Origin: Micromussa lordhowensis
Taxonomy: Eukaryota > Cnidaria > Anthozoa > Scleractinia > Lobophylliidae
NCBI GenBank assembly: GCA_964020085.1
Contig: OZ026597.1
Span: 984,313 to 1,048,312 of the forward strand
Reading direction: 5' to 3'
Length of the DNA: 64,000 nucleotides
The first letter of the stretch is position 1, and the number at the start of each line of letters is the position of its first letter. Below are positions 19,558 through 38,350 of this stretch, one piece after another. Under the pieces are notes generated by a model that saw nothing but the letters and a program-made list of their open reading frames with translations, was not told the DNA's origin and made no database searches. The position numbers were made by a program, and so were the translations under genes.

Positions 19558-22500
19558 ACGCCATGCCCGTCCGAACCAAAGCTCGGAAATGTAACCACCG
19601 CTCTACAGGGGGACTCCTTGACATGGCGACCAAATTTAACGGTACCTATATACACATGAAATTGAGTTTTAATTCAGAGCGTAATGTTGCTTTGGAAAAT
19701 GTTGTATGAGAAAAATGAAAGACCTTGCCTAAGTTATATAGTGTTTTCGAAGTCCACTGTTAAATGTTTCCCAAAACAAAACGACCTTCCCGGACTTTGG
19801 CAGGTCTTCTCCTATTGGTTGCAAGCTAATAAAGCGCAGCTTAAAGCAAAAATGACATGGCTAGAGGTGTATCTTCTACGGTCAGCCAAGTTTGATGTCT
19901 TGTTTATAAAAGGTGTCTTTACTCCTAGCTTGGCTCGAACAAAAAAAAAAAGATTATAGGAAGACAGGGAAATTGAATGCCACACAAAAATGGAAAAAAA
20001 ATTCTTGGAGTTCCCCCTATGGGGTCTGAACCATGCCTTTCCGAACCGAAGCTCGGAAATGTAGCCACTGCGCTACAGGGGGACTCCTTAAGTTTGCGAG
20101 CAAATTTAACAATACCTATATGCACATGAAATGGAGTTTTAATTCAGAGCGTAATGTTGCTTTGGAAAATGTTCTATGAGAAAAATGAAAGACCTTGCCT
20201 AAGTTATATAGGTTTTTCGAAGTCCACTGTTAAATGTTTCCCAAAACAAAACGACCTTCCCGGAATCAAGATCCGTACTTTGGCAGGTCTTCTCCTATTT
20301 GATGCAAGCTAATAAAGCGCAGCTTAAAGCAAAAATGACATGGCTAGGGGTGTATCTTCTACGGTCAGCCAAGTTTGATGTCTCGTTTATAAAAGGTGTT
20401 TTTACTCCTAGCTTGGTTAAAACAAAAAAGAAGATTATAGGAAGACAGGAAAATTGAATGCCACACAAAAATGGAAAAAAAATTCTTGGAGTTCCCCCTA
20501 TGGGGTCTGAACCATGCCTTTCCGAACCGAAGCTCGGAAATGTAGCCACTGCGCTACAGGGGGACTCCTTAACTTTGCGAGCAAATTTAACGGTACCTAT
20601 ATGCACATGAAATGGAGTTTTAATTCAGAGGGTAATGTTGCTTTGGAAAATGTTGTATGAGAAAAATGAAAGACCTTGCCTAAGTTATATAGGTTTTCCG
20701 AAGTCCACTGTTAAATGTTTCCCAAAACAAAACGACCTTCCCGGACTTTGGCAGGTCTTCTCCTATTCGATGCAAGCTAATAAAGCGCAGCTTAAAGCAA
20801 AAATGACATGGCTAGAGGTGTATCTTCTACGGTCAGCCAAGTTTGATGTCTTGTTTATAAAAGGTGTCTTTACTCCTAGCTTGGTTCGAACAAAAAAAAA
20901 GATTATAGGAAGACAGGGAAATTGAATGCCACACAAAAATGGAAACAAAATTCTTGGAGTTCCCCCTATGGGGTCTGAACCATGCCTTTCCGAACCGAAG
21001 CTCGGAAATGTAGCCACTGCGCTACAGGGGGACTCCTTAACTTTGCGAGCAAATTTAACGGTACCTATATGCACATGGAATGGAGTTTTAATTCAGAGGG
21101 TAATGTTGCTTTGGAAAATGTTGTATGAGAAAAATGAAAGACCTTGCCTAAGTTATATAGTTTTTTCGAAGTCCATTGTTAAATGTTTCCCAAAACAAAA
21201 CGACCTTCCCGGACTTTGGCAGGTCTTCTCCTATTGGATGCAAGCTAATAAAGCGCAGCTTAAAGGAAAAATGACATGGCTACAGGTGTATCTTCTACGG
21301 TCAGCTAAGTTTGATGTCTTGTTTATAAAAGGTGTCTTTACTCCTAGCTTGGTTCGAACAAAAAAAAAAGATTATAGGAAGACAGAAAAATTGAATGCCA
21401 CACAAAAATGGAAAAAAAATTCTTGGAGTTCCCCCTATGGGGTCTGAACCATGCCTTTCCGAACAGAAGCTTGGAAATGTAGCCACTGCGCTACAGGGGG
21501 ACTCCTTAACTTTGCGAGCAAATTTAACGGTACCTATATGCACATGAAATGGAGTTTTAATTCAGAGCGTAATGTTGCTTTGGAAAATGTTCTATAAGAA
21601 AAATGAAAGACCTTGCCTAAGTTATATAGTTTTTTCGAAGTCCACTGTTAAATGTTTCCCAAGACAAAACGACCTTCCCGGAATCAAGATCCGTACTTTG
21701 GCAGGTCTTCTCCTATTTGATGCAAGCTAATAAAGCGCAGCTTAAAGCAAAAATGGCATGGCTAGAGGTGTATCTTCTACGGTCAGCCAAGTTTGATGTC
21801 TTGTTTATAAAAGGTGTCTTTACTCCTAGCTTGGTTCGAACAAAAAAAAAGATTATAGGAAGACAGGGAAATTGAATGCCACACAAAAATGGAAACAAAA
21901 TTCTTGGAGTTCCCCCTATGGGGTCTGAACCATGCCTTTCCGAACCGAAGCTCGGAAATATAGCCACTGCGCTACAGGGGGACTCCTTAACTTTGCGAGC
22001 AAATTCAACGGTACCTATATGCACATGGAATGGAGTTTTAATTCAGAGGGTAATGTTGCTTTGGAAAATGTTGTATGAGAAAAATGAAAGACCTTGCCTA
22101 AGTTATATAGTTTTTTCGAAGTCCATTGTTAAATGTTACCCAAAACAAAACGACCTTCCCGGACTTTGGCAGGTCTTCTCCTATTGGATGCAAGCTAATA
22201 AAGCGCAGCTTAAAGCAAAAATGACATGGCTAGAGGTGTATCTTCTACGGTCAGCCAAGTTTGATGTCTTGTTTATAAAAGGTGTCTTTACTCCTAGCTT
22301 AGTTCGAACAAAAAAAAAGATTATAGGAAGACAGGAAAATTGAATGCCACACAAAAATGGAAACAAAATTCTTGGAGTTCCCCCTATGGGGTCTGAACCA
22401 TGGCTTTCCGAACCGAAGCTCGGAAATGTAGCCACTGCGCTACAGGGGGACTCCTTAACTTTGCGAGCAAATTTAACGGTACCTATATGCATATGAAATG

Positions 22501-24749
22501 GAGTTTTAATTCAGAGCGTAATGTTGCTTTGGAAAATGTTCTATAAGAAAAATGAAAGACCGTGCCTAAGTTATATAGTTTTTTCGAAGTCCACTGTTAA
22601 ATGTTTCCCAAAACAAAACGACCTTCCCGGAATCAAGATCCGTACTTTGGCAGGTCTTCTCCTATTTGATGCAAGCTAATAAAGCGCAGCTTAAAGCAAA
22701 AATGGCATGGCTAGAGGTGTATCTTCTACGGTCAGCCAAGTTTGATGTCTTGTTTATAAAAGGTGTCTTTACTCCTAGCTTGGTTCGAACAAAAAAAAAG
22801 ATTATAGGAAGACAGGGAAATTGAATGCCACACAAAAATGGAAAAAAAATTCTTGGAGTTCCCCCTATGGGGTCTGAACCATGCCTTTCCGAACCGAAGC
22901 TCGAAAATGTAGCCACTGCGCTACAGGGGGACTCCTTAACTTTGCGAGCAAATTTAACGGTACCTATATGCACATGAAATGGAGTTTTAATTCAGAGCGT
23001 AATGTTGCTTTGGAAAATGGTGTATGAGAAAAATGAAAGACCTTGCCTAAGTTATATAGTTTTTTCGAAGTCCATTGTTAAATGTTTCCCAAAACAAAAC
23101 GACCTTCCCGGAATCAAGATCCGTACTTTGGCAGGTCTTCTCCTATTGGATGCAAGCTAATAAAGCGCAGCTTAAAGCAAAAATGACATGGCTAGAGGTG
23201 TATCTTCTACGGTCAGCCAAGTTTGATGTCTTGTTTATAAAAGGTGTCTTTACTCCTAGCTTGGTTCGAACAAAAAAAAAGATTATAGGAAGACAGGGAA
23301 ATTGAATGCCACACAAAAATGGAAACAAAATTCTTGGAGTTCCCCTTATGGGGTCTGAACCATGCCTTTCCGAACCGAAGCTCGGAAATGTAGCCACTGC
23401 GCTACATGGGGACTCCTTAACTTTGCGAGCAAATTTAACGGTACCTATATGCACACGAAATGGAGTTTTAATTCAGAGCGTAATGTTGCTTTGGAAAATG
23501 TTGTATAAGAAAAATGAAAGACCTTGCCTAAGTTATATAGTTTTTTCGAAGTCCAGTGTTAAATGTTTCCCAAAACAAAACGACCTTCCCGGACTTTGGC
23601 AGGTCTTCTCCTATTGGATGCAAGCTAATAAAGCGCAGCTTAAAGCAAAAATGACATGGCTAGAGGTGTATCTTCTACGGTCAGCCAAGTTTGATGTCTT
23701 GTTTATAAAAGGTGTCTTTACTCCTAGCTTGGTTCGAACAACAAAAAAGATTATAGGAAGACAGGGAAATTGAATGCCACACCAAAATGGAAAAAAAATT
23801 CTTGGAGTTCCCCCTATGGGGTCTTAACCATGCCTTTCCGAACCGAAGCTCGGAAATGTAGCCACTGCGCTACAGGGGGACTCCTTAACTTTGCGAGCAA
23901 ATTTAACGGTACCTATATGCACATGGAATGGAGTTTTAATTCAGAGCGTAATGTTGCTTTGGAAAATGGTGTATGAGAAAAATGAAAGACCTTGCCTAAG
24001 TTATATAGTTTTTTCGAAGTCCATTGTTAAATGTTTCCCAAAACAAAACGACCTTCCCGGAATCAAGATCCGTACTTTGGCAGGTCTTCTCCTATTGGAC
24101 GCAAGCTAATAAAGCGCAGCTTAAAGCAAAAATGACATGGCTAGAGGTGTATCTTCTACGGTCAGCCAAGTTTGATGTCTTGTTTATAAAAGGTGTCTTT
24201 ACTCCTAGCTTGGTTCGAACAAAAATAAAGATTATAGGAAGACAGGGAAATTGAATGCCACACGAAAATGGAAAAAAAATTCTTGGAGTTCCCCTTATGG
24301 GGTCTGAACCATGCCTTTCCGAACCGAAGCTCGGAAATGTAGCCACTGCGCTACAGGGGGACTCCTTAACTTTGCGAGCAAATTTAACGGTACCTATATG
24401 CACATGAAATGGAGTTTTAATTCAGAGCGTAATGTTGCTTTGGAAAATGTTGTATAAGAAAAATGAAAGACCTTGCCTAAGTTATATAGTTTTTTCGAAG
24501 TCCACTGTTAAATGTTTCCCAAAACAAAGCGACCTTCCCGGACTTTGGCAGGTCTTCTCCTATTGGATGCAAGCTAATAAAGCGCAGCTTAAAGCAAAAA
24601 TGACATGGCTAGAGGTGTATCTTCTACGGTCAGCCAAGTTTGATGTCTTGTTTATAAAAGGTGTCTTTACTCCTAGCTTGGTTCGAACAACAAAAAAGAT
24701 TATAGGAAGACAGGGAAATTGAATGCCACACAAAAATGGAAAAAAAATT

Positions 24750-37680: not shown

Positions 37681-37973
37681 GGCGGGGGTACACGTGAATT
37701 TAAGTGAAATTTTGGTAAGTTTAAAGAGAGGTTGAAAGGGAAAAAAAGGGTTATGGAACACCACCAGACAGTTGCCCGACCGCACAATGGCACCCCAGGT
37801 TGTTGGGCAACTGGAAACAAGACAGCAAAATGTACGTTTTGTCCATATTTCCGTTCTGATTTCAAATTTCGTAACGAAACACATACAATATGCGGAGAAA
37901 CCTCTTTTCAAGGTTTACCATTGTTTTTGAGTCGGGCGAGTGAATGTTGTGGGCGCACGAATTTTTTTTACAG
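37681..37973. mobile_element. insertion in the array at TTAA, related to the TTAA MITE family
   Basis: A monomer is interrupted exactly at its TTAA (37677-37680). The first 150 bp of the insert match the family seen at 41061 and, inverted, at 43040-43190 (aagtgaaattttggtaag and gacagttgcccgaccgca blocks). The right half is unrelated to that family and ends before a TTAA at 37974-37977, after which diverged monomer sequence resumes. It is probably a rearranged or chimeric copy. Confidence 0.6.
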
Positions 37974-38350
37974 TTAAAACCAAATGATTTGATCCAGTCT
38001 TAGCCATGGCCAGGGGTGTATATTTTACTGTCAGGAAGAAATGATGTCCTGTTTTTAAAGGGTGTTTTTACTCCTAGCTTGGTTCGACTAAAAAAAAAGA
38101 TTATAGGAAGACAGGGAAATTGAATGCCACACAAAAATGGAAAAAAAATTCTCGGAGTGCCCACTATGGGGTCTGAACCATGCCTTTCCGAACTGAAGCT
38201 CGGAAATGTAGCCACTGTGCTACAGGGGGACTCCTTGAGTTATCGAGCAAATTTAACGGTACCTATATGCACATGCAGCATAGTTTTTATTTAGTAGGTA
38301 ATCTTGCTTCGGAAAATGTTCTGTGACAAAAATGAAAGATCTTGCCTAAG

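What the first reader, a model, noticed from the sequence alone, without database searches (positions are those of the whole stretch)
19558..38350. Forty-copy tandem array of a tRNA-like, Pol III-type unit
Seen: a 468/481-bp monomer repeated about 40 times. Each has on the minus strand a 72-nt sequence that folds like a tRNA, an A box, a weak B box at the 43-nt tRNA spacing, and a T run about 10 nt past the acceptor stem. The T run varies between monomers (T8, TTTTGTTT, T5 near 32567), yet every variant I checked keeps at least four consecutive Ts, the minimum for Pol III termination. Known: T4 or longer terminates Pol III, and A/B box spacing defines type 2 promoters. Inference: this may be a cluster of short non-coding RNA genes, or a satellite born from a tRNA/SINE head. 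I know of no described family with this monomer.
Basis: partly seen in the sequence, partly recalled or inferred. Interest (0 to 1): 0.88.

Follow-up and report, generated by a model that had tools for sequence, protein, structure and literature searches.

The report
Chromosome-bound tandem tRNA-like RNA genes
Forty head-to-tail copies of a roughly 470-base unit each carry a short tRNA-like sequence that is predicted to be made into a small RNA by RNA polymerase III; every related array we found lies on one chromosome-sized contig, and between arrays the tRNA-like part differs less than the DNA around it, which suggests that it likely has a job.

Summary
The array is real: 40 copies of a 468/481-bp unit (19561-38350), each with a folded ~81-nt minus-strand core, an A-box match, a variable B box and a T run. 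It is not a tRNA gene (Rfam's tRNA model misses it at E up to 10; no anticodon loop) and not a coding repeat. The window lies on a 46-Mb contig (C3) of a 581-Mb genome. Ten more loci were found, all on C3 (424 of 424 listed placements, from capped lists). Four array lineages differ at 23-31% outside the core, yet the first 49 core columns are the best-conserved stretch (45 of 49 invariant against 199 of 373), and a TATA-like block ~30 nt upstream is kept. Against: no covariation, one of five arrays with more, not less, diversity in the core, and no B box in the 77-copy array. Best reading: a tRNA-derived, Pol III-type small-RNA gene family, multiplied and homogenised like a satellite. Its kind is known from amphibians (PolIII/TAN, OAX); the long closing stem, UUCG-capped arm and one-contig distribution are its own. 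Expression is untested.

The parts
19561..38350 (-). Tandem array, 40 cores in units of mostly 468 or 481 bp (a 13-bp indel); some units truncated (27235-27258, 29955-29978) and the last ones broken by an insertion at about 37684-38004
20488..20568 (-). Representative core (81 nt): extended acceptor stem, D-arm, UUCG-capped arm, T-like arm
20546..20556 (-). A-box match TAGCGCAGTGG in the representative unit
   Evidence: sequence; 11-letter form in 39 of 40 copies
20503..20513 (-). B-box-like GGTTCAGACCC (degenerate)
   Evidence: sequence; at most 1 mismatch in 31 of 40 copies
20519..20540 (-). 9-bp stem closed by UUCG in place of an anticodon loop
20597..20603 (-). TATA-like CATATAG, about 30 nt upstream of the core
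   Evidence: sequence; TATA-like heptamer within 60 nt upstream in 40 of 40 copies, in none of the other 60-nt windows of the units tested; upstream block 33 of 45 columns invariant in four lineages
20475..20482 (-). T8 run, candidate Pol III terminator, 5 nt after the extended stem
   Evidence: sequence
2946..19554 (.). Left flank shared in order, in pieces of about 77-93% identity, with three other array loci on C3 (for one of them only from 7804 on, where its fetched stretch ends)

Best explanation
The array is a tandem cluster of 40 tRNA-like units that are predicted to be genes for a short (about 85-95 nt) RNA made by RNA polymerase III. How it would work (inferred): TFIIIC/TFIIIB are recruited by the A box, helped by a TATA-like element about 30 nt upstream and, in some arrays, by a B box; transcription starts just before the GGAG stem, passes the core, which mostly lacks T4, and stops at the T run; the RNA folds around an about 11-bp closing stem and a UUCG-capped arm, so it could not act as a translating tRNA. 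Shown by sequence: the window array carries near-identical blocks of several units, and the array with at least 11-16 kb of flank recurs at three other places on the same contig. Inferred from that: units multiply and stay alike by unequal exchange and segmental duplication, while selection on the RNA or its promoter keeps the core as the spacers drift. The most likely descent is from a tRNA gene copy. The RNA's task is unknown; high dosage through many copies, as for 5S rRNA, is my guess.
For: The core is the most structured part of the unit. Three lineages (window, 75-kb and 16.4-Mb arrays): first 49 columns 0.918 invariant against at most 0.796 in any window outside. Four lineages: 45 of 49 against 199 of 373 columns, Fisher 5e-8; upstream 45 columns 33 of 45, P 0.011. 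The 16.4- and 17.1-Mb arrays: core 94%, rest 75%. Within arrays core diversity is below the rest in four of five: 0.0146/0.0298, 0.0199/0.0343, 0.0323/0.0397 and 0.0215/0.0344; clearly so (at most 1% of other 81-nt blocks as low) in two. Fold energy between lineages is lower than the mean of GC-matched random mutants in 12 of 12 ordered pairs, at P below 0.04 in 10 (pairs not independent). T run of at least 4 in 220 of 224 copies, TATA-like in 195, 11-letter A box in 204; T7 or longer in 193 of 224, the four copies without T4 being 4 edge or truncated ones; controls. Near-identical blocks: five units with 0-1 differences, three with 0-2. Not coding: antisense open frame of 150 aa in 11 of 36 window units and 0 of 164 units of four other arrays.
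Against: No expression data. No pair with changes on both sides in 16 or in 10 sequences; pairing no better than column shuffles. In the 75-kb array core diversity is higher than the rest (0.0385/0.0262), and in two further arrays the lower core value is matched by 7% and 20% of other blocks. Substitutions inside arrays spare the fold at P about 0.05 in only 2 of 5 arrays (P 0.64, 0.175, 0.87, 0.05, 0.045). No B box within 2 mismatches in any of the 77 copies of the 16.4-Mb array. The 12-letter A-box form matches 1 of 224. The minimum-energy fold of the 16.4- and 17.1-Mb cores keeps closing stem, UUCG arm and 3' arm but not the D-arm. T4 inside the core in 13 of 224 copies. The TATA-like regex also occurs in 19.5% of other 60-nt windows of the 75-kb array, and matches only 61 of 77 copies at 16.4 Mb.
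Confidence: 0.5

Rival explanations
1. A neutral or selfish satellite that captured a dead tRNA copy: the core is a fossil promoter, incidentally transcribed or silent, and its apparent conservation reflects chance, local gene conversion or a bias that favours the GC-rich core.
For: Block-wise near-identity, no covariation, reversed diversity in the 75-kb array, B box absent from the 77-copy array, decayed edge copies.
Against: Core and upstream block both conserved across four lineages while the rest differs at 23-31%; mostly T4-free core followed by a T run.
Confidence: 0.32
2. Satellite made from a tRNA-derived SINE: a retroposed element with head, body and tail was tandemly amplified, as in squamate reptiles.
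For: tRNA-like head on a longer body; precedent PMC10702118.
Against: In 244,997 bases only array loci, their edges and one nearby fragment match; 424 of 424 listed placements are in C3 loci. Lists are capped, so old dispersed copies are not excluded.
Confidence: 0.08
3. The conserved core is a DNA site (TFIIIC or other binding) that organises this chromosome, such as a boundary or clustering element, and the RNA is a by-product.
For: Seen on one contig only; A box better kept than B box; no covariation.
Against: Conservation includes the UUCG hairpin beyond the A box, and fold energy is kept between lineages.
Confidence: 0.1

Closest known systems
PolIII/TAN (Hirt) tandem family of the newt Cynops pyrrhogaster (as described in PMC10702118, Background section read)
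   Same: Tandem unit of a few hundred bases holding a tRNA-like sequence, no matching SINE identified; stated there to be capable of in vitro transcription
   Different: About 360 nt, vertebrate; no sequence comparison was made here; transcription of our unit untested
Xenopus OAX (satellite I), Rana/polIII, Hydromantes Hy/polIII (same source)
   Same: Tandem repeat with a tRNA-derived or tRNA-resembling segment (for Hy/polIII the source calls this questionable)
   Different: Rana/polIII about 250 nt, Hy/polIII about 200 nt; Hy/polIII lacks a B box, like our 16.4-Mb array; sequences not compared here
SINE-derived satellites of squamates (PMC10702118: abstract, outline, passages and Background read)
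   Same: Satellite built on parts of a tRNA-derived element, some including a promoter box
   Different: No parent SINE seen here
5S rRNA gene arrays (recalled)
   Same: Short Pol III gene in homogenised head-to-tail units
   Different: Rfam at gathering score finds no 5S or other family in the window

Membership tests
Canonical tRNA gene | Recognised by the tRNA covariance model RF00005 | tested here: not met
   No RF00005 match up to E = 10 in one 1001-bp stretch of the window array and one of the 75-kb array, nor at gathering score in the window; the same model gives 61 matches of 38.9-79.1 bits among 63 scored candidates in this genome
Canonical tRNA gene | Seven-base anticodon loop with a readable anticodon | tested here: not met
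   9-bp stem with UUCG loop; ARAGORN reports 27 hits in the window, 26 as tRNA-??? with a two-base anticodon 'tc' and one as Arg, and 0 in the 9.9-kb piece of the 75-kb array
tRNA-derived SINE | Many dispersed copies | tested here: inconclusive
   None away from array loci in 20 sources, 244,997 bases, apart from one fragment 4.6 kb from an array; genome lists show C3 loci only but are capped
tRNA-derived SINE | Target-site duplications and a LINE-related or simple-repeat tail | not tested
   No dispersed copy available to inspect
Tandem Pol III tRNA-like satellite (PolIII/TAN kind) | Head-to-tail units each with a tRNA-like sequence | tested here: met
   similarity to eight tRNA genes of this genome reaches z 5.3
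Tandem Pol III tRNA-like satellite (PolIII/TAN kind) | Transcribed by Pol III | not testable with these tools
   No RNA data; A box, TATA-like and T run present
Type 2 Pol III promoter | A box and B box at tRNA spacing | tested here: inconclusive
   11-letter A box 204 of 224, 12-letter form 1 of 224; B box with at most 1 mismatch 120 of 224, none of 77 in the 16.4-Mb array even at 2 mismatches
Protein-coding tandem repeat | Open frame kept across units and lineages | tested here: not met
   11 of 36 window units, 0 of 164 units in four other arrays; no Pfam match for one such frame

The most novel reading that the evidence does not exclude
A new class of abundant, tRNA-derived regulatory or structural RNA, encoded by hundreds of tandem genes confined to one chromosome of an animal genome, with the anticodon arm replaced by a UUCG-capped stem and an 11-bp closing stem, and with copy number itself (array expansion and loss) setting its dose.
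Probability: 0.2. Interest if true: 0.8.

Novelty: new variant of a known kind. Interest (0 to 1): 0.5.

Why it matters
If the RNA is real, it is a multicopy Pol III product that Rfam does not recognise, and its arrays would show how selection on a short RNA core works inside a satellite that otherwise turns over by unequal exchange. If it is not, the family is a clean case of a Pol III promoter fossil kept or spread by satellite dynamics. Either way, eleven loci found on a single contig make it a candidate chromosome marker and a test case for how arrays spread along, but apparently not between, chromosomes.

Tried and rejected
Rejected: coding repeat (long antisense frame only in part of one array). 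Rejected: canonical tRNA genes. Not supported: a known Rfam RNA (0 matches at gathering score; the matches at E 8.8 and 3.9 and 6.5 are at chance level). Looked for the core in viral and in bacterial/archaeal contig collections with two patterns each: 0 matches; animal genomes are not what these collections hold, so this says little. A protein search with the antisense pseudo-frame found 16 predicted proteins: two are the window's own (P0004, P0005), P0013 and P0016 are 100% identical to translations of two other arrays here; the other twelve match the fetched arrays at about 72-98%, and P0010 matches its best place in the whole genome at 93%, so whether they come from this assembly, another haplotype or another species is open. 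Tried to find the species from its assembly size: the number occurs in none of the 15 papers listed. RNAalifold on 16 copies including decayed edge copies gave no cloverleaf. Paper searches for this family or for similar satellites in corals and cnidarians: (listings); the coral FISH-marker paper PMC12355185 (passages only) has no occurrence of 'tRNA'. A comparison with U6 promoters and a pattern count of all copies could not be run (tool busy).
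Full report
OBSERVATION. Tandem Repeats Finder rows of period 468 and 481 together cover 19561-37680. BLAST with one unit tiles the same stretch, with a truncated first unit at 19561, two truncated units inside and broken last units up to 38350. A covariance model built from ten cores of several arrays finds 40 minus-strand cores in the window, all between 19539 and 38234. The 96-nt stretch around one core folds at -41.8 kcal/mol (z -4.6). 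In a 20-nt-step scan of one unit the core stands out on both strands (z -3.2 minus, -4.8 for the complement); the next best elsewhere is -2.7. The fold has a closing stem of GGAGUCCCCCU with AGGGGGAACUCC (11 pairs with a bulge), a D-arm, a 9-bp arm capped by UUCG where a tRNA has its anticodon loop, and a T-like arm. Rfam at gathering score finds nothing in the window, and no tRNA match appears at E up to 10 in 1-kb stretches of two arrays, although the same tRNA model gives 61 matches in this genome (63 candidates scored).

GENOME CONTEXT. The window is C3:984313-1048312 of a 580.8-Mb genome in 1383 contigs. They fall into eleven loci: about 34-79 kb (49-60 kb not seen, so perhaps more than one array; a fragment lies at 84 kb), 417-419 kb, the window array, 2.100-2.118, 2.427-2.436, 2.595-2.610, 2.656, 2.700, 4.071, 16.380-16.418 and 17.100-17.111 Mb. 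In eight fetched loci 224 cores were counted: window 40, 2.1 Mb 38, 2.43 Mb 18, 2.656 Mb 4, 2.700 Mb 4, 4.07 Mb 3, 60-90 kb part of the first locus 40, 16.4 Mb 77; seven complete ones lie in 3.5 kb of the 17.1-Mb array. The 2.656- and 2.700-Mb loci are 99.9% identical over 13 kb. The window's left flank, 2946-19554, is shared in order with the 2.1- and 2.700-Mb loci, and from 7804 on with the 2.656-Mb locus, in pieces of about 77-93%, so the array was likely copied together with its neighbourhood. Of the right flank only short repeats match in the stretches fetched. Edge units are more decayed than interiors, and edge types recur between loci, which also points to copying of whole loci.

TURNOVER. 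Among 36 complete window units numbered 0-35, units 11-15 recur as 16-20, and 11 again as 21, with 0-1 substitutions, and 23-25 recur as 26-28 with 0-2, against a mean of 13 between units. Duplication of blocks by unequal exchange is the usual cause (inferred).

IS THE CORE CONSTRAINED? Between array lineages, yes by conservation. Comparing consensus units of the window, the 75-kb and the 16.4-Mb array, the best 49-column window begins 2 columns before the core (0.918 invariant; best elsewhere 0.796). Adding the 17.1-Mb array gives 45 of 49 invariant against 199 of 373 in the rest (Fisher 5e-8), 63 of 83 for the whole core (1e-4) and 33 of 45 for the 45 columns upstream (0.011). Columns were treated as independent and only four lineages are involved. 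Pairwise, core identity is 80-94% and the rest 69-77%. Fold energies of the lineages lie below the mean of GC-matched random mutants of each other in 12 of 12 ordered pairs, at P below 0.04 in 10 (not independent). Within arrays, core diversity is lower than the rest in four of five: clearly in the window (0.0146/0.0298) and the 16.4-Mb array (0.0215/0.0344), weakly in the 2.1-Mb (0.0199/0.0343) and 2.43-Mb arrays (0.0323/0.0397), and it is higher in the 75-kb array (0.0385/0.0262). Mutations inside arrays spare the fold at P about 0.05 in 2 of 5 arrays. No compensatory pair change exists in either alignment; many stem pairs do not vary and edge copies are decayed, so the test has little power, but it gives no support.

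PROMOTER AND TERMINATOR. An 11-letter A-box form matches 204 of 224 copies (a 12-letter form 1 of 224), a TATA-like heptamer lies within 60 nt upstream in 195, a B box with at most one mismatch occurs in 120 but in none of the 77 copies of the 16.4-Mb array, and a T run of at least 4 follows in 220; the four exceptions are edge or truncated units. T4 is common in the units (45-48% of 30-nt windows), so the terminator claim rests on the contrast: a core free of T4 in 211 of 224 (elsewhere 0-4% of 81-nt windows) followed by T7 or longer in 193 of 224 (elsewhere 1-9%). The TATA-like heptamer occurs in no other 60-nt window of four arrays tested but in 19.5% of those of the 75-kb array. The B box of the 75-kb array (GTTCGACCCC) is closer to the tRNA consensus than that of the window array. 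Consensus motifs for A and B boxes are recalled.

ORIGIN. Of eight tRNA genes fetched (of 61 places listed), the best match is a tRNA-Lys: 49 of 80 aligned columns identical with the 17.1-Mb core, z 5.3. An old tRNA copy is likely; a parent is not identified. In 244,997 bases scanned with the model, matches lie in array loci, at their edges, or in the one fragment at 84 kb.

WHAT IS KNOWN. The Background of PMC10702118 (section read) lists tandem repeats with tRNA-like segments in amphibians: PolIII/TAN of a newt (about 360 nt, capable of in vitro transcription), OAX of Xenopus, Rana/polIII and Hy/polIII; its authors found a SINE parent inconclusive for them. The present family is presumed to work in the same way and differs in unit length and structure; sequences were not compared. 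It fails the tests for a tRNA gene and a coding repeat; the SINE test is negative so far but capped.

VERDICT. A real, sizeable satellite family, seen on one contig only, whose units look like Pol III genes and whose core and upstream element outlast the spacers. A working RNA is the best single explanation (0.5), a promoter-bearing satellite without function the main rival (0.32). RNA evidence decides.

Noticed in passing
window 69-2011 (+): Two overlapping ORFs, the second with a Phage_integrase (tyrosine recombinase) domain, E 1.7e-07: looks like a DIRS-type retroelement at the edge of the duplicated flank (type recalled).
   Followed up: partly
window 2946-19554: About 16.6 kb shared in order with other C3 loci beside the same arrays; only an ORF list was made of it, no domain search.
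   Followed up: partly
window 6243-6444, 9796-10112, 7305-7562 with 9424-9678: Self-inverted stretches and an inverted pair inside the shared flank.
   Followed up: no
window 41057-41475, 42777-43194; L013 2918-3335: An interspersed repeat of about 418 bp, in both orientations in the window and inserted inside a unit of the 4.07-Mb locus.
   Followed up: no
window 44525-45016 (-), 49836-50522 (+): A reverse transcriptase fragment and a GIY-YIG ORF, the latter possibly of a Penelope-like element (element type recalled).
   Followed up: no
window 55936-56147, 46149-46424: A 102-bp unit repeated 2.1 times without mismatch, and an AGTAACG heptamer array.
   Followed up: no
G000 C2:19.55-22.18 Mb: Dozens of tRNA matches of near-equal score on both strands over 2.6 Mb of C2; the one fetched is a tRNA-Thr.
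   Followed up: no
C3:2136.7-2138.9 kb and 2719.1-2720.0 kb: The last long matches between the shared flanks of the 2.1- and 2.7-Mb loci lie in a short-period tandem repeat.
   Followed up: no
P0001-P0003, P0006-P0012, P0014, P0015: Twelve database proteins read from similar arrays that do not match the fetched loci exactly; they may point to another haplotype, unseen arrays or a related species.
   Followed up: partly
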